Below are positions 1,047 through 15,409 of a DNA stretch of 15,976 nt, one piece after another (positions within the stretch are counted from its first letter, which is position 1; every line of letters starts with the position of its first letter). Made by a program: the position numbers and the translations under genes. This stretch comes from Thalassiosira profunda (Eukaryota; Bacillariophyta; Thalassiosirophyceae; Thalassiosirales; Thalassiosiraceae). The stretch lies in contig JALLAP010001209.1 of assembly GCA_036939355.1 (NCBI GenBank), positions 1 to 15,976 of the forward strand, given 5' to 3'. The notes beneath the pieces were generated by a model. That model was not told the DNA's origin and searched no databases. It saw only the letters and a program-made list of their open reading frames with translations.

Positions 1047-3691
1047 TCACCGCCAGTAGTTGTCCTGCTGCCTCCACACTTGTTGCGGGTGCGGATTGGC
1101 AATTCCGGGGTCATAGGCTGCCGGCGCCGGGAACTCCATCGCGTGCACCCCCGCCGTCGGATCTGCCGCCAACGGCGCTGGATGATCCCGCTCCTCGCCC
1201 ACCATCGCATTGCCGCCCACGACGGCCTGGTTGTCGGTGTTGCCCTCCGCCCGCTTCTTCCTCGACCGCGNCCACCATCGCATTGCCGCCCACGACGGCC
1301 TGGTTGTCGGTGTTGCCCTCCGCCCGCTTCTTCCTCGACCGCGACCTCCGCGGCTTTTCCGTGATGCCGTTCCGCTTCCGTTCCTCGGCTGCTTCCAAAA
1401 ACCCGGGCAAGAACCGGGCGTACTCGCCAAACACCTGCTCCGCCCGGTCCACCTCCTCTCCGTTGAGAATGGTCACGAGCTTCTCGATCTCCAGCCGGGC
1501 GCCCGTTCGTCGCGCGGTGGGATAGTTGTCCACCCTTTTGTTCACTTGGTCCTTGTAGTAAACGAAGCCTGGAGGAATGGAGCGCGAACCTCAGTTCGGA
1601 GGGGTGCATGCAACTAGATGTGTCGTTGAAAGAGTATGCATCAGATGTATGTACTCACCGGTGCGCCATAGGTGCCTTTGATCCTTGATGGCGCTCAGCT
1701 CCTCCTCCAAGAACCCTCCGAGCTCGAGCGCTTCGCGCATCGTCAGTTCCGGATACACCAGCCGGGCCGCAATCGCGCGGTTCTGTCGCGGGTCGCCTCC
1801 GGGGACGGGGCGGGCATATCCTTCAGGCAGCCCGCACCACTGAAAGCCGAGGTTCTCCAATAGTTCGATGCGCTTGGGGCTGAGGCTCTTCGCCTGGCTC
1901 CTTTTGGCGGTCCGCTGACTTGTCACGAATTTCCCGAGCGCCGACTTCGAGTAGACTTTGCAGTTACCATTCTGTGGATATCAATCACAAGTAATGAGCG
2001 AGGCGGTGGTTCTTCAGAAGAGCCAAGGTCCATTCGCTTACCTTTTCCTTGAACTGCGATAGCAAACAGAAGTAGGACAATAGCGGTGGCAGGATGTCAG
2101 AGACCGAAGATAAAAGAAAAGGGCATACAGGCTTCTCGGCTTCTCACGTACCTCGACAAGCTCGGCATATCGCGTGTTCCACTTGACGTCGTTCGTCCCG
2201 TCGTAGCTAACGAAATTGGGCGGCAGCTCCACAGGCGGCGCCCCCACGTTCCCCTCCAGCTTATCGTTCTTCTTCGACGCCATCGCAAAGTTCTTCACGT
2301 ACGATTGGGGAAAGCGCTTCGCCATGTAGTAGAGAATCATATTGGCGGCGTCCTCCTGCGTTCCGCTGCAGTACGAACCCCACGCGTTGAGGAATTTGTC
2401 GAACAACTTGGTTTGCTTGTTGTACGCGTGAAAGCACTGGTTGTCGAGTTCGCGCTTGTTCACTGTCTCGCGCCGTTTGAGGGGGACGGCGATGAGCTGG
2501 TACCGCGCCGGGCCCATCTTGGCGGTGGTGTTCACGCCATTCCGCTTGTCCCATTGCAGCAGCTCCGTCATGAGGTCTTCCCGTCGGTGCTCCGCCGCCC
2601 GGCCCGTGCCATCCGCGCCCAGTTCCCTGAGGTAAGGGAACGTCTGCTTCCGATTGTTGTGCCCCGCATCGTCCACCTTCCGGCTGCCACCTTGGAGAAG
2701 GCGCTGCGGTTTCAAGACGCCGAACTTGCGCACGCGCTCCTTCCCCACGGCGAGGTCGGCCATCTTTTCCACCTTCCGCCCGTCGATGGTCACGATGCGA
2801 TCGCCGACGCAGATCTGTCCTCGGAATGTGCAGGCAGGATCGACCCCCGTGACCTCCGCGCCGCCCTCCGCCAACATCGTGAGCGTGAGCCCCAGCCGTC
2901 CCGGGGACACGGTGAGCACCAGGAGGGACGGCACCGGCGGAGCCTTCCGCTTCGACCCCGAAAGCGTCTTCTTCGCCTTCGCCCGGGGGTGGGGCCCGTT
3001 CGGATTGTCGCAGCTTTTGCACTTGCAATCGTCGTGGCATCCAGTCGACGAAGCGTAGCAGGCACAATAGAGGAGGACGCAACGAGAGTTGCGGCAACTG
3101 CACTTCAATTCGTGGCCATGTCCTAAATGCGACAGAGAGAAGGTGTGTAAGAGGGACTGCTCGTTCAATCGGGCCTTAGAAGAGTCTATCCTGAATGCAG
3201 CTTCCATCAACATCTATCGCGGTACAACCATCACCACACTCCAGCAGGCAAATAATGAACGCATGATAGGCCCCCCCAGTTGAATTGCCAAATAGCAGGG
3301 CAAGCACGCAAGCAACAACAATACCACAAACACTTGGCTGAGCGTGTCGTAGGTTCAGGTGTGTGTCTGATCTGCTCATTAATCTCTCTAATGCACCCGC
3401 GACGGAGCCGACCAGGCCGTCGCAAGATACGAGCACATGATAAACAGACAGCGGCCGCTCACCTCCTCCCTCCCCGCCCTCGGCATTAGCCCCCTCGGTC
3501 GCTACATCTCCACCCAGCTCCGCGGTGGATGTCAGTTGGGCCTCCGCGGGCGTCGCCGCGTCGCCCGGCTGTCCACCACCGCCCGGCTGGCCACCGCCAG
3601 CGGCCGCGCTCGCTGCTGCTACCGCAGCCCCGGCCGCCGCGGGGGCAGCGCCCTCCGCGTCGGCCGTCGTGTCAAGGGACGTCGTTGGCAT
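1047..3691 (-). CDS. CXC (tesmin/TSO1-like), PDZ-like and helicase-associated (HA) domain protein
   Basis: Five exons are inferred on the minus strand: 3691-3463, 3122-2152, 2053-2042, 1971-1659 and 1568-1047 (TGA at 1049-1047). Donors are GTGAGC, GTACGT, GTAAGC and GTGAGT; all acceptors end in AG, and the phases (1, 0, 0, 1) match. With the 73-bp assembly duplication removed from the last exon, the product is 657 residues. Residues 1-76 are Ala/Gly-rich low complexity. Residues 84-114 hold nine Cys in exact CXC spacing (C-x-C-x4-C-x4-C-x-C-x6-C-x3-C-x-C-x2-C) with the usual Tyr before the fourth Cys. Residues about 143-213 are PDZ-like (GRLGLTL, then VGDRIVTIDG). Residues 391-449 form an HA domain (WNTRYAELVE to LSPKRIELLENLGFQW). 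A basic RSRSRKKR patch near the C-terminus could be a nuclear signal. CXC domains bind DNA and HA domains accompany helicases, so a nuclear DNA-linked role is inferred. An in-frame ATG at 3811 would add 40 residues. Confidence 0.85.
1199..1343. repeat. Exact 72-bp duplication around a single N (assembly overlap)
   Basis: Bases 1199-1270 and 1272-1343 are identical, with N at 1271. The duplication interrupts the last exon of the CXC-PDZ-HA gene. The frame before it (ending in NQAVVGGNAMV) continues in the frame after it (GEERDHPAPL) only if 73 bp are removed. Confidence 0.95.
2042..2053 (-). other. 12-nt microexon encoding FKEK inside the HA domain
   Basis: The minus strand reads ...ctatcgcag|TTCAAGGAAAAG|gtaagcg, an acceptor and donor enclosing four codons in phase 0 on both sides. 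The flanking exons end in ...RYAELVE and begin NGNCKV.... Joined, they give AELVEFKEKNGNCKV, which follows the HA-domain pattern of Leu-x-x-Phe-(Lys)-x-x-x-Gly-(His/Asn)-x-x-Val. Skipping the exon would keep the frame but remove the conserved Phe. The flanking introns are 98 and 70 nt. Confidence 0.8.
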
Positions 3692-4138
3692 GGTGACGGG
3701 TTCATCTGCGCGGGTCTGTTCGAAACGGCTGGTGGGGTTGGCGTCTCGTCTGTCTGCCTTCGGTCGTTTGCTTGTGTGGTGTGGAAAGTGGAAAACGCGT
3801 CTTCCAGCCAAGCGAGATTCGTCCCTCGCTCAGGCCTCGACCAAACTGGGACAAAGAGAGAGCCGCGGGCTGGAGACTGCTGGATCAACATCATGCAACA
3901 AAGTAATGGAGCGCTCAGCAGTATGAGATCGCCAGTTGCCGTTACCATTCAGTTGAACCATTTCATGATACCATACGATGAATTGATCAACAATTCCGAA
4001 CACAAGACGTGCACGTCGACCAAAGGAAGCATACTCAAGCTGCTACAGAAACCCCCCAACAACATTCCAGACGCAGGGTGCCATTCATCAACGGTTGTTC
4101 TAGATGATATTAGAGCGACGACGGCTCGAAGCGAGCTA
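3692..4138. other. Spacer between FNR 3' end and CXC-PDZ-HA start
   Basis: This holds the 3' untranslated region of the reductase gene and the promoter or leader of the CXC-PDZ-HA gene, both on the minus strand. The CXC-PDZ-HA frame stays open back to an ATG at 3811, so part of it may be coding. No clear AATAAA signal follows the reductase stop. Nothing else is recognised. Confidence 0.45.
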
Positions 4139-5855
4139 TTAAAAATCAATCCACTCGTCGTAGTCAATTCCCTTGGACTTGCACACCTCCGCGAGCATGT
4201 CCTGGATTCCGGGCATCATTCCCTTAAGACCGCAGAAGTACATGTGGGCGCCGTTGTCGAGCTTGTCGAAGATCTCATCGGCGTACTCCTCGACCTTGTC
4301 CTGAATGTACATCTTCCCTCCCTTCTTGTTCTCCTGCTCGCGGGAGAGGGCGTAGTCCAGCCGGAAGTTGTCCGGGAACCGGGCCTTGGCGTCTTGGAAC
4401 TCGTCGTCGTAGAGGAGGGCGTCGGAGTTGGCGACGCCGAGGAAGAGCCACGCCTCGCCCTTGTACTTCTCGGCGACGGGGGTGTCCTCGAAGAAGAGGC
4501 GGCGGACGAATCCGCGGAAGGGGGCGATTCCGGTGCCGGTGGCGACCATGATGTAGTCGGTGGTGGGGTCCTCCTCGGGCATGAGCATGACCTTTCCGGC
4601 GGGGCCGGTCATCATCACCTCGTCGCCGGGGGCGGTGTCGCAGAGGAAGTTGGAGCAGATGCCCTTCTTGGCCGGATCGTCGGCCTTCAACTCCGGGCAC
4701 CAGTAGGTGGCGCGGCGGACGCAGAGGGAGCCGGTCTTACCGGTCATGTCGTCTCCGTAGCGGGAGGAGGCGATGGAGTAGAGACGGACGGCGTGGGGCT
4801 TTCCGTCCTTCTCGCGGTTGCCCGGGGGTATGACGCCCCAGGACTGTCCCTCGATGTAGGGGAAGTCGCCCTCGTGGTCGATGATGATGTGGCACGTCTC
4901 GCCGGTGGCCTTGGGGCCGACGATGCGCTTGGTCGAGACGACCTTTCCGGTGAAGGGGGCCTTGTTCTTGTAGGTGTTGACCTTCACGCCGGAGTGGTCG
5001 TAGTACGGGGAGTACTCGAGGAAGTCCTGCTTCAAGTTCAGGGAGGTTCTGTTGTATAGAGGAGAGAGAAGAGGTGAGATGTTTGCAAGAACGTGATCCG
5101 TGTGGTATAGAAGCACCCAAAAGAAGGTCCCGTCCTGAGATTGGGAGTAGATTGTGATATCAGCACCATGCCTCAGCCGATGTGCCCAGCCACGTAGCCA
5201 GAGAGTTGTGTGCACATCTTCTGTGGTCTTCTACCAACTGCGTNCTCAGCCGATGTGCCCAGCCACGTAGCCAGAGAGTTGTGTGCACATCTTCTGTGGT
5301 CTTCTACCAACTGCGTCTTTCGGGTGGAGTTGGGTTGAGCCGCGGCTTGATGTCAAGCTTCAATCACTGCTGGTGCGTGGAGGACACCTTGACACCCGGA
5401 CGAGAGGGGCAGAGGTCGTTGCACCTCGGATTTGCCGCCGACGAAGGCCAGCGGAGGTCTCGGCATACAGACTCAGCAGGAGGAGCTGCGCGCTCTGTGG
5501 GCGCTTGCAGGGGCGAAGGATCCAAGGCAGCGCAGTTGCCAACAACTGTGCCCGCTGCCCGATGATTCCCTGTCGACCCTTCTCTCCTCGAGCCTCAACT
5601 TGGCGCAGGATATCCACAAGACGTGCACACACCATTCTCGATTCTCGCCCACACTTTTGCAGTTGCAGCTTCCATTACACGGCATTCCGTCGGCCTCTCT
5701 GTTCCCTCCACCACCACCAAAAGTAACCGCGCTCGGTGCACCCGCGTCGACCACCAAAAAGATCCCCAGAGATGCACTCACCCGAACTTGGGAGCGGACG
5801 AGGGCACGAACGCCGAGGCGCTGGCCAGGGTGGCGGCGAGGAGGGCGACCTTCAT
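4139..5855 (-). CDS. petH: Plastid ferredoxin-NADP+ reductase (FNR), nuclear-encoded
   Basis: FNR moves electrons from photosystem-I-reduced ferredoxin to NADP+ through FAD, in the plastid stroma or at the thylakoid surface. Exon 1 (5855-5782) and exon 2 (5048-4139) join in phase 2 through a GTGAGT donor and a CAG acceptor, giving 327 residues. Residues 1-15 are a signal peptide and residues 13-18 read ASAFVP, the motif that directs proteins to red-lineage complex plastids. FAD-binding RLYSIASS is at 113-120, GICSNFLCD at 154-162, NADP-binding GTGIAPFR at 196-203, and [14 protein letters not shown] lies near the C-terminus. The protein ends ...[10 protein letters not shown]; plant and cyanobacterial FNRs continue about a dozen residues to a terminal Tyr that stacks on the flavin. 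The 733-nt intron is the longest firmly placed one in the window and contains an assembly duplication. Confidence 0.93.
5172..5316. repeat. Exact 72-bp duplication around a single N (assembly overlap)
   Basis: Bases 5172-5243 and 5245-5316 are identical, with N at 5244. It lies inside the FNR intron, so it does not affect the protein. Removing it shortens that intron from 733 to 660 nt. Confidence 0.95.
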
Positions 5856-6594
5856 CTTGACTGGGTTATGATAATGAAAAATTATGGCGGCTGCGGAGGG
5901 ACGCGGCCGAAGAACAACGCGAGGGTGCGTGGTGTTGGCGGCTGGAGGCAGGTGTTTTGCGCGCGGGCTGGCGCCGTCCGTGGGATTTTTAGGGGTGGGA
6001 TAAGGAGCCAAATTCGTGTCATGAATTGTAAATAATACGACAGAGTGCTAATTTAATTTAATTCCACTAATCTTTCAATGCTATCTTCAAAACGATTTTG
6101 TAAGCGCTGGAGAAGATCTCGGCGACTGACGTACTCAGCGAGTGCTGTTTGGTCAGGGGAGATGTCAAAAAATACATGTCCAATTTTCGGAGATTGACTG
6201 GGGTCTCCCAATAGAATTTCCTAACAAAAACAGCAGAAACGCGAGAACAAGAGAAGTCAAATTCTGGAGAACAGATGATAAATCTCAAGCCCACGTATCT
6301 TGCCGACAATCGGGATTCCGTGGTTGTTGGATTTGCACGAGTGGACTCGCCTCAAAATGAGTCGTATGACTTCTCGCTCTCAACCTCAACTGTGAAATGA
6401 AAAGCAAGTCCTCTATCAAATGGCCGGAAAGAACAGATGAATATCTAGATACTATGATGTTTCGTCCGTCGTGGTGTTTGAACACCGAAGAATGAGAAAG
6501 GTTGTATCCAGCCTTTAAAGTGGTTTGCAAATTGCACGTATCGATCCCCGACCGCGAGCTTGAAAGAGCAATCGTCAACGCAGGGACGGATGCA
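5856..6594. other. Intergenic region with no recognised gene
   Basis: This contains the promoter of the reductase gene (adjacent to 5855) and the far 3' flank of the SnoaL-like gene, both minus strand. From about 6010 onward it is clearly more AT-rich than the flanking exons, which suits non-coding DNA. A 157-codon minus-strand frame (6285-6758) overlaps it but has no domain or targeting signal, and it runs into the 3' untranslated region of the next gene. Confidence 0.5.
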
Positions 6595-6600
6595 TTTATT
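6595..6600 (-). terminator. Candidate poly(A) signal AATAAA
   Basis: The minus strand reads ctacAATAAAtgc about 155 nt beyond the TGA of the SnoaL-like gene. This is the canonical eukaryotic signal, in an AT-richer stretch downstream of a convincing stop codon. Confidence 0.4.
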
Positions 6601-6754
6601 GTAGATCCACATCCATCAACATTTATCCAGTGCACAGATTTGGGTGCATAGTCTGCGTCAGGCCGCAGCGAACGGCAAAGCAATGGCTCGTGTCCCGACG
6701 AGCTTCCCGCGTTCGCCCGGCTCCGCACAACATTGCACACGAATTGTCGCGTCG

Positions 6755-7580
6755 TCATCTACTGCTCTTCAGCAGCATCTCCTCCCACCGGCTGAACGTT
6801 CGTGTGATGACAATCTCCTTGATCTTCAAATCGTCGTCCACCCAAAACCGCGTCTGGCCCTGCACCGTCAGCGGCGATCCGTCGGGCTCGATGCCCTCGG
6901 AAGGACCGGACCAGCTCCCCTCCTCGTACCAGTGGGCGTGGACCCAGTTGTTGTTTCGGCCTCTCCCGCAGGTTGGACTGATCGTTGCATTGCAAGCCAG
7001 TGAGATGGATTAGATCCGAGTTGGCGCATTGCGTGAGATTGTATTCACAGTCCAAAGACCCGCTTCATTCATAATATTATCCCGGGGGCACTCACGCGTA
7101 GCGAAACATCACTTTGCAATCGGGATGGGCCGCCAGGAACTCGCGGCACCGCTCCCCCAGGAACTCCGGCGTAACTTCCTTCCCCACCGCTTCATACGGC
7201 ACGTCTCTGTTGGCCAAACTGCAGCAAATGTCGCGGATGGTTGCGCCCTCTTCAGAGAAACACTCGACGATCTGCGGAATGTTTTGGGTATCGACGCCGT
7301 GGAAGTACTTGTGCACCACTCTTTCCCGGAGGTCCTTCCCCAGTCCGATGCGCAGGCGGAGCTTTTGCAACAGGGTCGGCGACGTCAGCGCGTCGGTGGG
7401 GGCGCGCGGGCGGATCTCGAGGTGCGGATCGCTCGCGGATCGGAGGGCGGTGGCGGAGGACGACGTGGCTCGCGCCGCGGCGGAAGCGCAGAGCGAGCGG
7501 GCGGCGGGCGAGAAGGCCTTGGCGCCGCGGGCGAGGGCCAGGGCGCCGAGGGCCGCGAGGAGGGCGGCGGGCCGGGCCAT
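6755..7580 (-). CDS. Plastid-targeted SnoaL/NTF2-like protein
   Basis: Exon 1 (7580-7096) and exon 2 (6977-6755, TGA at 6757-6755) join in phase 2 across a 118-nt intron (GTGAGT donor, CAG acceptor), giving 235 residues. Residues 1-22 are an Ala/Leu-rich signal peptide, followed by AKA|FSPAARS with Phe at +1 and then a Ser/Ala/Arg-rich stretch. This is the presequence form used for complex red-lineage plastids. From about residue 90, the segments VVHKYFHGVDTQNIPQIVEC, FSEEGATIRD, HAHWYEEGSWSGP, QGQTRFWVDDDLKIKEI and a closing TFSRWEEML fit an NTF2-like cone fold of the SnoaL type. That fold serves many small isomerases, dehydratases and binding proteins, so no reaction can be assigned. An ATG at 7607 would add nine residues; 7580 is preferred because it begins directly at the signal peptide. 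Confidence 0.8.
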
Positions 7581-7686
7581 AGTAGCTACGACGCGGACGT
7601 TGTTCACTGCGGCCGCGGGAGTGCGTGTGAGGGTGAGGTGAGTCGAGTTTGCAAAAAATTGGCTCTTTTTCTTTTTCGGACGGAAG
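7581..7686. promoter_or_regulatory. Compact divergent (bidirectional) promoter region
   Basis: Only 106 bp separate the start codons of the minus-strand SnoaL-like gene (7580) and the plus-strand DUF285 gene (7687). Both core promoters and 5' leaders must fit here or extend into the coding sequence. A CCAAT sequence reads on the minus strand at 7662-7658, 78 nt from the SnoaL-like ATG. A pyrimidine-rich run (7663-7677) precedes the plus-strand ATG. No TATA box is evident. Confidence 0.5.
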
Positions 7687-9767
7687 ATGGAGAAGAATCA
7701 AACCACCGCCGCGGACGCGGACGGCGCCGCCAGCGGCGGCGGCAGCCCGTCAGATACGGAGGGGGGCGGGCGGTCGTCGGCGGGCGCAATATCCCTCGGC
7801 GACGCCTTGGCCTCCTCGGCGGTCCAAACGCACTCGAGCACAACCGATGCACCGTCGCCATCTGCACGCGTCGAGAACCACCCCGAGCCCGACGAGGCGC
7901 CGGTGCCCGTCGCTCAAACTGCCGCTGCTCGCGATGCCGAGTCGGAGAATGGCAAACGGAGGGGCGTGGAGGAAATTGACTCCTGTGGAGGCGACGTTCC
8001 GGTGCCCGTTGGAATGTTAGACACATCTCATGAGCATGAGACAGAGGGATTGAAAGGGCCGGAAATTGGTGCCGACGATGGAAGAACGCCGACAGTTGCG
8101 CCGACAATCAAAGGGGTGGAATCGATCGGGCGCGACGATGGGGAGTCGGGCGGACCTGCCCCCGCATCTTTGGATAGCAGCGTCCGGGCCGTCCGACCGT
8201 CCCTGCCCTCGATGATCCCTCGGACTCCCCCCGCGTCCGAGCGCGGGGAGCCGCCCGTGCTCGCCTTCCACGAGGTGCACGCTCGCCTGGTCGAGGATGA
8301 AATGGATGAGCCGGTTTATGACGCAGTGCCTGTGGGAGAGGAACATTGGGCCAAGCGGCACCAGAGGAAGATCATCGGGGGTCTCGTGCTCGCGATTGTT
8401 GGATTGGCCGTGGCGCTGGGGGTAGCGTTCGGCACGGACGGCGACGACGAAGGCGAGGATGCCACAAGGACAACGATTTCTGCGACGAGGTCGCTCTCAC
8501 CGATAACATCGGCGTCTCCCTCGTCCGGGCCGAGTCAGGCCCCGTCGATCGAACCGTCGAACCAACCCTCGATGCATCCGCGCTTGTGCTTCGCGGACAG
8601 CGAGGAGCTCTGGGCGGCTGTCGATAATCCAACCGTCGATGCACCCACGCCCCTGCTTTGCCGACAAGGAAGAGCTTCAGGCTGCGGTGGACGGCTACGC
8701 TGCTGGAGGGGCCGCCTGCGTAAGGGGAGAAAGCGAGTGCGAGGTCACGCAAAAGTATGGGTGGCCGATCGGAACGTGGTGCACGTCCAACGTCACCGAC
8801 ATGTCTCGATTGTTTGAGGGGAAAGCCAGTTTCGATGAAGACCTGTCGTTGTGGGATACCTCCAAAGTGACGTCAGTGGAGAGAATGTTCGAAGGAGCCT
8901 CGGCATTCAACGGGGACGTGAGCAGTTTTGACACCTCCAAAGTGACTTCAATGTCTCGCTTGTTCCTTCGAGCCTCTTCATTCAACCAGGACTTGCCCTG
9001 GGACGTCTCGGACGTCACGGCGATGGATAGTATGTTCGAGGGAGCATCGGCGTTTGGTCGTGATGTGAGCAATTTCGATACCTCCAGAGTCACGTCGATG
9101 GCGTACATGTTCCAGCAAGCTTCGACTTTCAATAAGGACTTGCCGTGGGATACCTCGAGGGTGACAGATTTGACGCGGATGTTCTATTACGCAACTTCCT
9201 TCAATCGGGACGTGAGCGGTTGGAATGTTACCTCTGTGAGAAGAATGAATGGGATGTTTCTTGGAGCCTCTTCTTTCAACCAAAATCTCTGTGCCTACGG
9301 AGCCTACCATTCGACTGGAGTGAAATACAACAATATGTTCTTCAGCACGAGCTGTCCAAACAAAGACGATCCTCTGGGGCCTTCTACGAACTGGTGTGCG
9401 GCGACATGCGACAGTGACGGGCAGACTTCCACATGCTATGATGTTGAAATGGGCATCCTTCTCGATAGCTCTCCTTTGGGCGTGGGCTACCGTTTGTCCA
9501 AGGTCGAATCTACCGGCAGCAAAACCACAATTAATCGACTCATTCCGCTTCGACGACTCTCTGGCCAACGAACAATACACTCGAACCTACTGCCTGGAGA
9601 GGGGCAGGTACAGTTTTTACGTGTATGATCGTTCCGGAGAGGGCATCTGTTGTTCGAAGGGCAACGGCGAATATGCAGTAACGAGCGAGGGAGCGACCCT
9701 GGCCGTGGGCGGAGAATTCGCTACATTCAGCGAAGAAGCTGTCTTTGACATCCCCGTAGTGGCATGA
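7687..9767 (+). CDS. Membrane-anchored DUF285-repeat surface protein, frame broken twice (possible pseudogene)
   Basis: No convincing intron is needed. The frame from 7687 encodes about 227 disordered residues rich in acidic, Ser and Pro residues. A single membrane helix follows (about 229-248, IIGGLVLAIVGLAVALGVAF), then a Ser/Pro linker (PSSGPSQAPSIEPSNQPS). The head motif CFADxEELxAAVD occurs twice because of a 67-bp duplication, which shifts the frame by one. The second frame (through 9628) holds YGWPIGTW and seven DUF285 (PF03382) repeats, then a Cys-containing cap (STNWCAATC). Near 9520-9540 the homology moves to a third frame reading TYCLERGRYSFYVYDRSGEG, ICCSKGNGEY and VGGEF, and stopping at 9767. 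That tail resembles the ICC-containing C-terminal domain of secreted stramenopile proteins. An N-in, C-out orientation is inferred. It is either a young pseudogene or a gene with sequence errors; all segments are otherwise well preserved. Confidence 0.75.
8563..8696 (+). repeat. Diverged 67-bp tandem duplication of the DUF285 head motif
   Basis: Copies at about 8563-8629 and 8630-8696 align without gaps at roughly 70% identity. Copy 1 reads QPSMHPRLCFADSEELWAAV and copy 2 reads QPSMHPRPCFADKEELQAAV in the next frame. As 67 is one more than a multiple of three, the duplication itself causes the frame change. The mismatches show it is old, unlike the exact 72-bp assembly duplications. A 49-nt GT...AG removal (8620-8668) would restore the frame, but the donor GTCGAT is poor. 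Confidence 0.8.
8792..9310 (+). repeat. Seven DUF285 repeats (24-25 residues each)
   Basis: Units follow V-T-x-M-x-x-M/L-F-x-x-A-x-x-F-N-x-D-(V/L)-x-x-(W/F)-D-T-S-x. Examples are VTSVERMFEGASAFNGDV and VTDLTRMFYYATSFNRDV. Units three and five lack one residue (DLPWD in place of DLSLWD) and are 24 residues long. The array ends in a divergent cap, NQNLCAYGAYH. Confidence 0.9.
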
Positions 9768-10722
9768 GGGCCGCGGCGAGGGCTGTCGCGTTTTACTACA
9801 ACACGATAGGTGTGGAGTGTGGAGCGTTGGACGCCCCGAGACTGGGCGAGCGACAGCAAGAATCTTTCGTTCGGAGTCTTATCGACGCTGCGCTGGTGGC
9901 CCAACTCATTAACATCACACTCTAATTGCCTATTGTCTAGAGCCGCGTACAAATTACTCTTGCTGTTGAGGGCATTTTGCATTGGTTCATTTGTTCTTTC
10001 TTCTTGCTGATCCATCCTGTATCCAAGAAGCCCCGCGTAGCCGTACGCCAATCATCCTCTCGCTCGCCACGCAGCATCTCCAGCACATGCCGAGGCCCCC
10101 CGACTGATCCACGGCGCGTCGAGGACGAGGGCACCGAAGTTTCGAAGGAAGCGGTGGGTGGACCGGGGACGAAGCGGAGCAAGTCCGTGGCCCGCCACCT
10201 CCAACGATAGCCACGTAGCCTCCACCGCCAAACGGCGGGGGTCTCCCGTGGCTAGTGCACGATAGACGAGACGCTAGCCGAGCAACGCCAGCTGCAATGC
10301 GAGACTTTTGGTACCGCCTGCACCGTCAGGACGTGGCTCCAACGAGAGAGAGGGAGATTGTTGAAGTTGAAGAAGGACGCGTGGTGAACGAAAAATTTGG
10401 TTGAGTTCGGCTCTAATTGCATGCAGCTTCTTAGAACCTACGACGGACTCACTACAATACGCCAGGATCTTGGACTTTTCACCATCTTGCGTCTTGAGCA
10501 GCCCCCTTCTTGGAAGGGTCTTGCCGCGCCGGGCCGCTTCTCTTGCAATTGAACGACGTTGTCCCCGCACAAATGAATAAGAGGTGCTGCCGAAACCAAC
10601 CGATAATATTCGTCCTGATTGCTCTCATTGATCTCATTTCCGTCCTGCACTACCACCGCCTGCACCGCCGCCACCGTCTCGTCTATTTGGCTGCGGAGTG
10701 CATTTTGCGGACGAGGACTGCC
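9768..10722. other. Intergenic region, possibly ending in a 5' untranslated exon of the downstream gene
   Basis: This follows the stop of the first DUF285 gene. Several 75-98 codon frames occur on the minus strand (for example around 10274-10674, with the segment GNEINESNQDEYYRL), but none shows a domain or a complete gene structure. The right end (10722) precedes a good plus-strand splice donor, so part of this could be a 5' untranslated exon of the second DUF285 gene. Confidence 0.4.
10208..10254. repeat. Two-level stem-loop (47 bp)
   Basis: An outer perfect 8-bp stem pairs 10208-10215 (TAGCCACG) with 10247-10254 (CGTGGCTA). Inside it, CCGCC at 10225-10229 pairs with GGCGG at 10234-10238 around the loop AAAC, extended by two further C-G pairs past one mismatch. 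It lies in non-coding DNA. It lacks the arms of a tRNA, and its role is unknown. Confidence 0.5.
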
Positions 10723-11536
10723 GTGAGTGCCCCCTCCCTCCTCTCCTTTTCACCGCTGTGCCATTCGTCGCTTGCCCGATGCCCGGCGGACTGTTGCGCG
10801 GTGTGTTGCATTTGTTGCCCGGGAGATGTCGGTCTCGCGTCGAGACGATGTCGCGAATTGCGGCGCGCCGCTCGAACACGAGTTTGCTTGTTGCTCATGT
10901 TGGATCCGCGGCCCTCGCCCCGGCCCAGCGGAGGACGAACGCCCGCCGTCGTCAGCTTGCCGGCTTGCACCACCAGCCCCTTGCGGTTGGTGCGGGGGCC
11001 GAAGTTGCAAAAAAACGACGCGCGTTGCACAGGCGCACTCGCACACCTCCTGGCTCGCGGTGGCCCCCAACCCCTCCGCCCCGAGCGCTCGTTGCGCGCC
11101 AACGGAATTGGCCCCGGCCGGCCCTCCCCTTGCCATGTCCGCCAATCCTCCGCGCCGGCGGTCGCGCCCGATCTGCGATGTCGGTGGACCCATCAAGCCG
11201 CGCGGCCGGCCGCACATCATGCACACATCACGCGCGCGTCCGAGGCGATAGGCGACGGGTTGATGGTGGCCGGCGACCTGCTCGACGAGTCGCCCCTCGT
11301 CCTATCACCTCTTGCTCCGTCTCGTGGTGTTTCGTCGGACGTCGTGGCCGCGGTTTTGTTTCCAACCTCGTCGGATGGCTCGCCGGACGCTTTTGTGCAT
11401 ATGCGATGTGTGTGTGTGTGCATGGATGTGTTTTCATCGGGGGAACGCGCCCTCGTTTCCTGTTTGATATCTCATATTGATTTGTTTATCAATCACATCT
11501 CACGCTATTGTTGCTTCGTTCTGTATCTCTTTGCAG
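10723..11536 (+). other. Possible 5'-UTR intron of the second DUF285 gene
   Basis: A donor GCC|GTGAGTGCC at 10723, the same form as the confirmed donors in this window, is matched by a strong acceptor tctgtatctctttgcag|GCCGG ending at 11536. That acceptor is 188 nt before the ATG of the plus-strand DUF285-WSC gene. If used, the 814-nt intron would hold the very GC-rich segment 10900-11230 and the TG repeat. Nothing coding is firmly seen inside. A separate unrecognised gene here is possible, since a minus-strand stretch around 10890-11020 has strongly GC-ending codons. Confidence 0.35.
11407..11420 (+). repeat. (TG)7 microsatellite
   Basis: Seven perfect TG dinucleotides follow gatgcga-like sequence and precede CATGG. 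It lies about 115 nt upstream of the acceptor of the possible 5'-UTR intron. Confidence 0.85.
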
Positions 11537-11724
11537 GCCGGACAACCATCGATACATTCTCATAACGTGAAATAGGACCCGGAGTCCGCAGCATCGAAGG
11601 AGGGACGTTTCACGTCGATTCTTCAGCGAGTGGAAAAAACACCGAAGCCCAAATCACCGATAAGAGTCTCAGATACGTTGCCTCGAGGGACGATCTACGC
11701 CACTTCAGGTCAGAGACCGCAGTC

Positions 11725-14700
11725 ATGACCAACGAGCCCAACGATCCAGCTGCTCCCCCCGGGGAAGACGTCAAGGATGTCCCCGAAGCCACCCTCGAAG
11801 TCGAAGATGATGTGGCGCCGGTGCCCTTCGAGGATTCCCTTGATGACCCTCAAGACGCGGTGCCGCAGGAGCCGCGCCGCAGAAGCAAACTTGTCAAGGG
11901 CCTGAGCGCGATGGGCCTGAGCACGGTCGCACGTCGCTTCGATCGCCGGGGGCAGGGAGAGCTCGACGAAGCGGAGCAGCGGGCGCGGGATCTCGCGGAT
12001 ACCCAGGGCCACGTCCGCCCCGACCAAGCCATCACCGCGATGGAGCTTGGCATGGCCAACGAGAAGAAGGTGAGCTTAATCTCTTTCCATCTATTTCTTT
12101 ATCCTTCTCCATCTCACATCGTATCTCTCCAACCTCCCCGATCGAACAGCTCACCAAGGCCGTGCGCCACGTCAGGCTGTTGTCGGTCTTGGCTTTCGTC
12201 TTCTTCGTTGGGTTGTTCGTGGCCGTGTTCTTCGCGTCCGACAACGCCGTCGCCAAGGGCAACGTCGAGGTCAAACAGAAGATCGACGAGAGCGTCCAGA
12301 CCGACGTCGCCGTCGATGCGTTGGGCGACCCCCACCTGACGGACAAGGCCACCGGCAAGGACGTCACGGTCAAGGCGGACGGCGTGGTCGCCGGAACGAC
12401 CCCGCGCGTGAGTCGTATTCTTGTTCGATTTGACACACGAGTCCAGTGAAAGCGTAGATCTCACATATCATGCTTATTTGATGTTCAGGTCCTCAACGGG
12501 CGCAAGCTGACGTGCATCTCCATGGTCGACGTTGCCAAGGCAGTTGGTGGGTTGGCAACTGCTGCGACAAAAGTCAACCTCGTCTTCCACGATGAGGAAG
12601 GCACCGAGACCGAGATCACGCCCNTTGGCAACTGCTGCGACAAAAGTCAACCTCGTCTTCCACGATGAGGAAGGCACCGAGACCGAGATCACGCCCTTGT
12701 TGGACTACAAGGACGAGCAGAGCTTCTTGTCCTTTGATGGTGGAAGGATCAAGATCCTTCTGGATTCCGATGCCTGCGATTCTGCTGCCACGCTCGATGA
12801 CGGCGTGGAGGGAGTTCGTCGCCTCGGGCAAGTCGCGATTTCGACTTCTCGCCCAGGCGCCAAGGGCGAGGGCATCCAGGCCAAGCTTCGCCACGCTTTT
12901 GTCTCTGCTCGGACGGCGCTTCGCGAGGGACGGCGCCTGGACAGCAATGTTGAAGTGGAAGTGACTGTTGATGGCACGGTGAGTAGTAGCTGGGGTACGA
13001 ATTCTTTTCGTCGATCTCTGGTCCTCATCTGTTGCCCAGCAAACCTGCTTTGTTGAGCTGGAGTCTGGCCTAAGGCATCTTGCTCAGTCTCCCTATCTTC
13101 CTTTCGAGAATAGAGCTCAACTCAAGGAAGCCGTGGATGCCTACATCGATTGTGGCTGTGCCACTACGCCTGGCTGCNGAGAATAGAGCTCAACTCAAGG
13201 AAGCCGTGGATGCCTACATCGATTGTGGCTGTGCCACTACGCCTGGCTGCACTGTTGAGGGCACGTACGGGCCCATTGGCTTCTGGGACGTAAGCCGCGT
13301 TACCGACATGAGCTTCTTGTTCGAGAACAAGAGGTCTTTCGACGAAGACATCTCTGACTGGGACACATCGAGTGTTACGACAATGCAAGGGATGTTCCAA
13401 GGAGCCAGAGCATTCAACCGCGACCTGGCGAAGTGGGATACTTCAAGCGTGACTGATATGTCACAAATGTTCTATGGTGCCTGGGCATTCAACGGGGATG
13501 TGAGCAACTTCGACACCTCCAAAGTTACTGACATGTCACAAATGTTCGCGGCAGCCTCGTCATTCAATGGCGACGTGAGCAACTTCGACACCTCCAGAGT
13601 GACTTCAATGGGTCGGATGTTCGATCGAGCCAATGCATTCAATGGGGACATGAGCAATTGGGACACCTCCCAAGTCACTGATATGGATGCCATGTTCAAT
13701 GGAGCCTCTTCCTTCAACGGGGATGTGAGCAATTGGGACACCTCCAAGGTCACTCGGATGGATTCAATGTTCTGGCAAGCCTCTTTATTCAACGGGGATG
13801 TGAGCAACTTCGACACCTCCAGCGTCACTTCAACGGAGGGCATGTTCCGTGAAGCCACTGCATTCAACCAAGACTTGTCGAGCTGGGATGTATCCAGCGT
13901 GACTGATATGTATGAAATGTTNTGAAGCCACTGCATTCAACCAAGACTTGTCGAGCTGGGATGTATCCAGCGTGACTGATATGTATGAAATGTTCCGTGG
14001 AGCCAGCTCATTCAGCGGCGACATCTGCACGTGGGGTGCCCATCATTCGACTACAGTGGATTATCGCGACATGTTCCGCGGCTCAAATTGCGACAACACC
14101 GACGATCCGGCAGGGAAGTATGGGAATTGGTGCGCGTCAAAGTGTCCTGCGCCCTACCATTTGGTGGGGTGCTACAAAGATGATACCAGCAACAGAGATT
14201 TTCCCGCCAATATTGCGATGTTTACAGATGATGTTACTCAGGATACGTGCCACGAAGCATGCAGGAACCTCGACTACAGTGAGTTTACCACCTCAATCTC
14301 ACAATTGAATAATGTCTTTTCATTGCTCACCTTGCGTCGCTACCTACTCCAAAGAGTATTTTGGCCTACAGGGGAATGATTTGGGGGGAAGCGAGTGCTT
14401 TTGCGGAAACAATCCTGGATCTCATGGAGAAGCCACAGGCTGCGATTGTTCCTGGGGATCGACCAATTTCGGCTCAGACAAGAATTGTGTTTACACCATC
14501 CGGGTATGTTGATTTGGTTGCCTCTTTGTTTCATTCCAGCCTCGCACTGACAAACTATTTTTATGACAAACCATTTTTATCCAGTCCAAGCTGACCCTGG
14601 ACCCTTGCGTTGGCGAGGTTGGGTTGTACTACCCCGACGAAGATCGCGATGGATATGGGAACAAAACTGCAGTGCCAAAGTCATGCATTCACCCGTGGCA

Positions 14701-15122
14701 CGTGCTCAACAATCAGGACTGTGATGATGCTGATCGTTCTGTGAATCCTGGAGCTCAAGAAGTCTGTGGCGATGGAATTGATAACGACTGCGATGGCAAG
14801 TTCCTCGACCCAAGNGAATCCTGGAGCTCAAGAAGTCTGTGGCGATGGAATTGATAACGACTGCGATGGCAAGTTCCTCGACCCAAGCACTGAAGTCTGT
14901 GACGGGCTGGATAATGACTGCGACGGCAACACAGATGAAGGAACCATGCCCTGCGAGTTTAGCTGCAGTGGTTCCATACCTATGTGCACAAACTTGGGTA
15001 GCAAGGGCGCTCACGACAATGTATGCCAATCAAAGAATACGGGCGACTCTTGTGACTGTGATGCGGAATGCGCCGGGGAATCGATTTGCAGGCCATTTTT
15101 CAATTTGAATACTTGCTCCTGA
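11725..15122 (+). CDS. EF-hand-like, single-membrane-helix, DUF285-repeat, WSC and MopE-type metal-binding surface protein
   Basis: Six exons: 11725-12069, 12150-12407, 12489-12978, 13040-14278, 14355-14503 and 14585-15122. Introns are 61-81 nt, with donors GTGAGC/GTGAGT/GTATGT and matching phases (0, 0, 0, 1, 0). Removing four 73-bp assembly duplications gives one 908-residue frame. Residues 1-60 are acidic. Residues 72-84 (FDRRGQGELDEAE) are a degenerate EF-hand loop. Residues 125-144 are a membrane helix, followed by a roughly 200-residue domain of unknown type (TDVAVDALGDPHL onward). Residues 363-398 are the head motif (ENRAQLKEAVDAY, YGPIGFWDVS). DUF285 repeats run from 400 to about 630 and end in a Cys cap (NWCASKC). 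A WSC domain covers 663-754 (HLVGCYKDD, YFGLQGNDLGGSECFCGNN), and a MopE-type Cys/Asp region about 769-850 (DCDDADRSVNPGAQEVC, DGLDNDCDGNTDEG). A cytosolic N-terminus and an extracellular C-terminus are inferred. WSC domains commonly bind carbohydrate, so adhesion or wall contact is plausible. Confidence 0.9.
12552..12696. repeat. Exact 72-bp duplication around a single N (assembly overlap)
   Basis: Bases 12552-12623 and 12625-12696 are identical, with N at 12624. It interrupts exon 3 of the DUF285-WSC gene. Removing 73 bp joins TEITP to LLDYKDEQSF in one frame. Confidence 0.95.
13106..13250. repeat. Exact 72-bp duplication around a single N (assembly overlap)
   Basis: Bases 13106-13177 and 13179-13250 are identical, with N at 13178. 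It lies at the start of exon 4, in the head motif before the DUF285 repeats. The exon is in frame from its acceptor (13040) only when one copy is removed. Confidence 0.95.
13299..14046 (+). repeat. About nine DUF285 repeats (25 residues each)
   Basis: Units such as VTDMSQMFYGAWAFNGDV-SNFDTSK repeat every 75 bp with little drift. Several adjacent units share near-identical DNA (TTCAACGGGGATGTGAGCAA occurs repeatedly), which suggests recent expansion or homogenisation. The same DNA words occur in the neighbouring DUF285 gene (8792-9310). One exact 72-bp assembly duplication (13850-13994) falls within the array and inflates it. Confidence 0.9.
13850..13994. repeat. Exact 72-bp duplication around a single N (assembly overlap)
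   Basis: Bases 13850-13921 and 13923-13994 are identical, with N at 13922. It lies within the last DUF285 repeats, where a true 75-bp repeat might be expected. The unit is 72 bp, not 75, it has no mismatches, and it matches the form of the five other N sites. Confidence 0.93.
14743..14887. repeat. Exact 72-bp duplication around a single N (assembly overlap)
   Basis: Bases 14743-14814 and 14816-14887 are identical, with N at 14815. It interrupts the MopE-type region in exon 6. Removing 73 bp joins DGKFLDP to STEVCDGLDNDCDG. Confidence 0.95.
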
Positions 15123-15206: not shown

Positions 15207-15245
15207 AAAGAACAGCAGGCCAAGAAACTACAGAAAAAGAAGAAT

Positions 15246-15409
15246 ACGTCCCAGCGACGGAATAAACGAACCCAAACACCAGAAGACGTCCCAGCGACGG
15301 AATAAACGAACCCCAGAAAAAGCAGAACACGTCCCAGCGACGGATTAGTAAACGAACCCAAACATCAGAAGACGTCCCAGCGACGATAAACGAACCCCAG
15401 AAAAATAAA
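15246..15409 (+). repeat. Degenerate tandem repeat carrying AATAAA poly(A)-like signals
   Basis: The core ACGTCCCAGCGACG recurs at 15246, 15286, 15329 and 15372 (spacing 40, 43 and 43). Each core is followed by a TAAACGAACCC-like segment. The linkers alternate (CCAAACAYCAGAAG and CCCAGAAAA types), so the higher-order unit is about 83-86 bp. AATAAA occurs at 15261-15266, 15301-15306 and 15404-15409, with variants (AGTAAA, GATAAA) in the other units. It lies 124-287 nt past the stop of the DUF285-WSC gene, where a poly(A) signal is expected. Confidence 0.75.

What the first reader, a model, noticed from the sequence alone, without database searches (positions are those of the whole stretch)
1199..14887. 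Six single-N sites, each flanked by exact 72-bp duplicates
At 1271, 5244, 12624, 13178, 13922 and 14815 a lone N separates two identical 72-bp sequences. The constant length, lack of mismatches and placement in exon, intron and repeat alike point to unmerged k-mer overlaps (k-1 = 72 would fit) rather than biology. Each adds 73 bp and shifts the frame by one, so automatic gene models here will be truncated or will invent introns. Removing them restores two genes to full length. The same artefact probably occurs across the whole assembly.
Basis: seen in the sequence. Interest (0 to 1): 0.75.

Follow-up and report, generated by a model that had tools for sequence, protein, structure and literature searches.

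The report
Unmerged contig overlaps marked by N
Six 72-letter exact duplications in this diatom sequence are almost certainly assembly software errors, where neighbouring contigs were joined with a single N without merging their shared ends, so they matter only because they break gene models.

Summary
It is best read as an assembly artefact. In 286,000 bases that I sampled from elsewhere in the same 21.8-Mb assembly, all 13 gaps are a single N; 8 have exact 72-base copies, 2 have 72-base copies with 1 or 3 mismatches, and 3 do not fit. Of 16 exact direct repeats of at least 60 bases (offset 30-400) in window plus sample, 15 have offset 73 and an N between the copies; the other is a tandem repeat of another period. 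A diverged paralogue on contig C942 carries the 12552-12696 sequence once. At site 1271 a homologous protein matches part of the duplicated residues once, although the window offers them twice in two frames (modest E-value). The best mechanism is de Bruijn contigs overlapping by k-1 = 72 (k = 73), scaffolded with a minimum gap of one N. This class of error is known. The DNA is from a diatom; among the named best hits centric diatoms lead. Assembler and species were not identified, and no reads were available.

The parts
1199..1343 (.). 72-base copy 1199-1270, N at 1271, identical copy 1272-1343; inside the 3' coding part of the minus-strand CXC/PDZ/helicase-associated gene
   Evidence: homologues P0154 and P0156 align to both sides in different frames (modest E-values)
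5172..5316 (.). 72-base copy 5172-5243, N at 5244, identical copy 5245-5316; upstream of the reductase homology, apparently non-coding
   Evidence: no codon phase long on both sides
12552..12696 (.). 72-base copy 12552-12623, N at 12624, identical copy 12625-12696; coding-like stretch of a plus-strand gene
   Evidence: paralogue on contig C942 has this sequence once
13106..13250 (.). 72-base copy 13106-13177, N at 13178, identical copy 13179-13250
   Evidence: shared open phase
13850..13994 (.). 72-base copy 13850-13921, N at 13922, identical copy 13923-13994; inside a DUF285 array of 75-base units
   Evidence: within the array from 13328 the spacing is 75 or 150, and 73 only at this N
14743..14887 (.). 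72-base copy 14743-14814, N at 14815, identical copy 14816-14887
   Evidence: shared open phase
1050..3213 (-). gene with CXC (TCR), PDZ and helicase-associated domains, broken by the 1271 site; ends approximate
   Evidence: Pfam hits on two of its open stretches; homologues by tblastn
4142..5068 (-). ferredoxin-NADP reductase coding stretch, itself without an N
   Evidence: Pfam NAD_binding_1; up to 92% identity to diatom reductases
13224..14376 (+). DUF285 repeat region, followed by a WSC match below Pfam's cut-off, split into two frames at 13922
   Evidence: Pfam on the two pieces apart; ORFs

Best explanation
Short reads from a diatom were assembled with a de Bruijn graph at k = 73. Contigs that meet at an unresolved branch both keep the shared k-1 = 72 bases. 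Paired reads then placed them next to each other with an estimated gap of zero or less, and the scaffolder wrote its minimum gap, one N, instead of merging. Shown: 72-base exact copies at all six window sites, single-base gaps only, recurrence in the sample, and single-copy counterparts at two sites. Inferred: the de Bruijn step and its k, the branch as the cause of the break, and the scaffolder's minimum-gap rule. Two sampled sites with 1 and 3 mismatches, and one with a partial overlap at another offset, suggest that heterozygous or erroneous branches cause some breaks.
For: Six of six window sites are exact at 72. In the sample, 13 of 13 gaps are one base long, 8 of 13 exact at 72 and 2 of 13 near-exact at 72. 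All 15 exact repeats at offset 73 in window plus sample have an N between the copies. In the DUF285 array from 13328 the 75-base lattice breaks to 73 only at the N. Contig C942 has one copy where the window has two, the two alignments (82% and 87%) sharing the same 72 paralogue bases. P0154 residues 274-286 are matched by both copies in two frames. No other match was found in the assembly for 1000-1600 or 4900-5600, so long repeats are not the evident cause there. Overlaps of k-1 in de Bruijn graphs, gaps put between overlapping contigs by SOAPdenovo2, and k-related variant-call bias that persists in scaffolds are documented (PMC5368935: passages, sections 9 and 13).
Against: Five of 13 sampled lone Ns are not exact 72-base overlaps and three of them show none at that offset, so the lone N means at most 'joined with a non-positive gap', not always 'k-1 overlap'. 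The second matches of P0154 and P0156 do not appear at E <= 1e-3 under default statistics, only in the permissive search. The assembler and its k are unknown. No reads were examined.
Confidence: 0.97

Rival explanations
1. Haplotype false duplication: two alleles of one place were assembled as separate contigs and set side by side, as described for vertebrate drafts.
For: Two sampled sites have 72-base copies with 1 and 3 mismatches and one has a partial overlap at another offset, as allelic ends would give. Kelley and Salzberg describe duplicated overlapping contigs (PMC2864568, passages).
Against: All six window sites and 8 of 13 sampled sites are exact and of one fixed length; allelic duplications would be expected to vary in length and identity. 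It may still explain some of the inexact sites outside the window.
Confidence: 0.02
2. Real tandem duplications of 72 bases, separated by one unresolved base.
For: Real tandem repeats do occur in this genome: L010 has a 184-base exact repeat run at offset 135 without N, and the window has diverged 75-base and about 40-43-base arrays.
Against: None of the 15 exact offset-73 repeats lacks an N; fixed length in unrelated places; 73 added bases shift any frame they fall in; a paralogue has one copy and a homologue matches part of the copy once.
Confidence: 0.005

Closest known systems
k-1 contig overlaps of de Bruijn assemblers and their traces in scaffolds (PMC5368935: passages and sections 9 and 13 read)
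   Same: Overlaps of k-1; k-related anomalies persist in scaffolds; gaps are inserted between overlapping contigs (reported for SOAPdenovo2).
   Different: That paper studies variant-call bias near contig ends; the one-N, two-copy signature is not described in the passages and sections I read. It gives SOAPdenovo2 -K 71 as k = 72, so an overlap of 72 would need an even -K there; whether that is possible I did not test.
False segmental duplications from mis-assembly, 'duplicated overlapping contigs' (Kelley and Salzberg 2010, PMC2864568: passages read)
   Same: Adjacent contigs share sequence at their ends and appear duplicated; coding sequence is affected.
   Different: Those arise from diverged haplotypes; here the length is constant and the window copies are exact.
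Cyclotella cryptica draft of 2016, assembled with ABySS 1.3.1; paired-end libraries of 76-base reads (PMC5124317: passages read)
   Same: A centric diatom draft by an ABySS pipeline; that ABySS contigs overlap by k-1 is recalled.
   Different: Not shown to be this assembly; the C. cryptica reductase listed in the protein database is 92% identical to the window's.

Membership tests
Unmerged k-1 contig overlap | Copies of one fixed length | tested here: met
   72 at 6 of 6 window sites and 8 of 13 sampled sites, plus 2 near-exact at 72; 3 of 13 do not fit
Unmerged k-1 contig overlap | Exact identity of copies | tested here: met
   6 of 6 in window; in the sample 8 of 13, with 5 of 13 not exact
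Unmerged k-1 contig overlap | Recurs across the assembly | tested here: met
   Exact cases in 6 of 37 sampled loci outside the window, unevenly spread
Unmerged k-1 contig overlap | Single copy in related sequence | tested here: met
   C942 paralogue at 12624; P0154 over part of the copy at 1271 (modest); sites 5244, 13178, 13922 and 14815 not tested this way
Unmerged k-1 contig overlap | Assembler run with k = 73 | not testable with these tools
   The assembly is unnamed
Unmerged k-1 contig overlap | Reads span with one copy | not testable with these tools
   No reads available
Haplotype false duplication | Copies differ as alleles and vary in length | tested here: not met
   No differences at 6 of 6 window sites; 3 of 13 sampled sites would fit it (1 mismatch, 3 mismatches, partial overlap)
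Real tandem duplication | Found also without an N between copies | tested here: not met
   0 of 15 exact offset-73 repeats lack an N

The most novel reading that the evidence does not exclude
Lone Ns in this assembly mark real branch points of the graph, so their positions could serve as a map of heterozygous or multi-copy sites in this diatom; the window, with six in 16 kb against 8 exact cases in 286 kb of sample, would then be an unusually polymorphic stretch. The window was picked because it has them, and contigs numbered 1000 or more are richer in them, so the excess proves little.
Probability: 0.15. Interest if true: 0.15.

Novelty: not a real feature. Interest (0 to 1): 0.08.

Why it matters
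Only as a quality warning. Extrapolating from 8 exact cases in 286 kb gives about 610 in 21.8 Mb (Poisson 95% interval 263 to 1202). That estimate assumes an even spread and a random sample, and neither holds: 7 of the 8 lie in the 65 kb taken from contigs numbered 1000 or more, and I chose the stretches. Each such site adds 73 bases and shifts a frame wherever it falls in coding DNA, so automatic annotation is likely to split genes or invent introns there (expected, not tested). A simple scan for one N with equal 72-base flanks would flag them.

Tried and rejected
Haplotype copies of the sites elsewhere in the assembly: no other match was listed for 1000-1600 or 4900-5600; for 12400-15100 the call listed 60 matches, of which, besides the window itself, two fall on the useful C942 stretch and the rest lie in the DUF285 part. 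The tool warns that only the best candidates are scored and that no match does not prove a sequence unique.

Homologue test at 1271: 59 homologues were compared with the window; 10 align within the first 2039 bases, and I looked closely at 8 of these (permissive settings, composition correction off, E up to 50, output cut in the middle). Two, P0154 and P0156, have a second match beyond the N in another frame (E 2.4e-4 and 1.6e-4); these second matches are not listed at E <= 1e-3 under default statistics. Only P0154's two matches overlap within the duplicated residues, and only over part of them. P0137 runs weakly through the N in the same frame and does not discriminate. The other five gave no second match of note beyond the N in the output that I saw.

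Assembler and species: paper searches (17: 20 of 375 listed; 18: 1 of 1; 24: 10 of 47; 25: 12 of 17; 32: 10 of 11) showed no description of the one-N, two-copy signature in the listings or in the passages I read. That ABySS marks unmerged joins with a single n is recalled and unverified. The 49-diatom annotation paper (PMC12159174, passages) did not identify the assembly.

Full report
What is there. The window is contig C1017 of an unnamed assembly of 21,800,803 bases in 1366 contigs. It has exactly six non-ACGT letters, each a single N, at the six reported places. At each, the sequence before the N and the sequence after it are identical over exactly 72 bases. The repeat finder returns four of the six as 72-base pairs at spacing 73, the 1271 pair in a register shifted by six bases, and the 13922 pair inside a DUF285 repeat family.

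Is it assembly-wide? I took 286,000 bases from 37 loci outside the window (three loci that lie in the window's contig were left out). Most are the first 5 or 10 kb of contigs spread over the list; six come from contigs picked because they hold DUF285 matches (C942, C941, C706, C67, C19, C322), two from contigs next to the window in the list. They hold 13 gaps, all of one base. Eight have exact 72-base copies, two have 72-base copies with 1 and 3 mismatches, and three do not fit: L014 shares 55 bases at another offset, L019 shares nothing longer than 7 bases within 300 bases on either side, and L029 has an 18-base suffix-prefix overlap. The spread is uneven: contigs numbered 1000 or more (L019-L022, L024-L028; 65 kb) hold 7 of the 8 exact cases and 9 of the 13 Ns; the remaining 221 kb hold 1 and 4. 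If contig numbers follow the assembler's own numbering, late numbers may be late merges; this is inference.

Is it ever seen without an N? Window and sample together have 16 exact direct repeats of at least 60 bases at offsets 30-400. Fifteen have offset 73 and an N between the copies; one of these is a 62-base run inside the copy pair that has one mismatch. The sixteenth is a 184-base run at offset 135 without N, a tandem repeat of its own. The DUF285 array from 13328 has spacing 75 or 150, and 73 only at the N of 13922; the other array, near 8850, has one spacing of 147, so natural spacing also varies, but by whole codons.

Single-copy counterparts. A diverged paralogue at the end of contig C942 aligns to window 12400-12623 at 82% and to 12625-12776 at 87%, and the two alignments share the same 72 paralogue bases: one copy, uninterrupted. 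At site 1271, in the minus-strand gene with CXC, PDZ and helicase-associated domains, homologue P0154 aligns at residues 186-286 to one side in frame -3 and at residues 274-349 to the other side in frame -1 (E 2.4e-4); residues 274-286, part of the duplicated stretch, are matched by both copies. P0156 aligns at 159-252 and at 294-322 (E 1.6e-4) in the same two frames. These second matches came from a permissive search and are not listed at E <= 1e-3 under default statistics, so this site's evidence is modest. The other six of the eight homologues examined do not discriminate in the output I saw, which was cut.

Reading frames. Without joining anything, I measured how far each codon phase stays open leftwards from copy 1 and rightwards from copy 2. 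At 12624, 13178, 13922 and 14815 one plus-strand phase is open on both sides (34/119, 41/223, 224/128 and 59/78 codons). At 1271 the phase backed by homologues is open 83/50, but other phases are open too in this G+C-rich stretch. At 5244 no phase is long on both sides. DUF285 domains are found on both sides of 13922 in frames that differ by one.

What organism. The reductase stretch at 4142-5068 is up to 92% identical to diatom ferredoxin-NADP reductases; named ones at 92% are from Cyclotella cryptica, Stephanodiscus triporus and Skeletonema menzelii (best 120 of 7369 listed). The CXC/PDZ gene's named hits include Skeletonema potamos. The database is clustered at 90%, so the species is not settled.

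Mechanism and literature. Fixed exact 72-base copies around a one-base gap are what k = 73 contigs give when placed side by side without merging. PMC5368935 (passages; sections 9 and 13) states that de Bruijn overlaps are k-1 long, that the k-related variant-call bias persists after scaffolding, and that SOAPdenovo2 often inserts gaps between overlapping contigs. PMC2864568 (passages) describes the related haplotype error. PMC5124317 (passages) shows that one centric diatom was assembled with ABySS; this is a lead, not an identification.

Verdict. Observation confirmed, interpretation supported, ordinary assembly artefact.

Noticed in passing
window 8821-9111 and 13328-14021: Two stretches of DUF285 repeats in 75-base (25-residue) units; a search of the assembly lists diverged copies on many other contigs, several of them in clusters (C19, C67, C783), so this looks like a large family in this diatom.
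   Followed up: partly
window 15234-15399: Four degenerate copies of a 40-43-base unit.
   Followed up: no
window 1594-3213 (-): A CXC (TCR) domain and a PDZ domain on one open stretch, with a helicase-associated domain on the next; homologues, mostly unnamed, carry combinations of these domains.
   Followed up: partly
L010:5627: A 184-base exact repeat run at offset 135 without any N, a likely genuine tandem repeat.
   Followed up: no
sampled loci outside the window: Lone Ns are much denser in contigs numbered 1000 or more (9 in 65 kb) than in the rest (4 in 221 kb), perhaps a trace of the order in which the assembler numbered merged sequences.
   Followed up: partly
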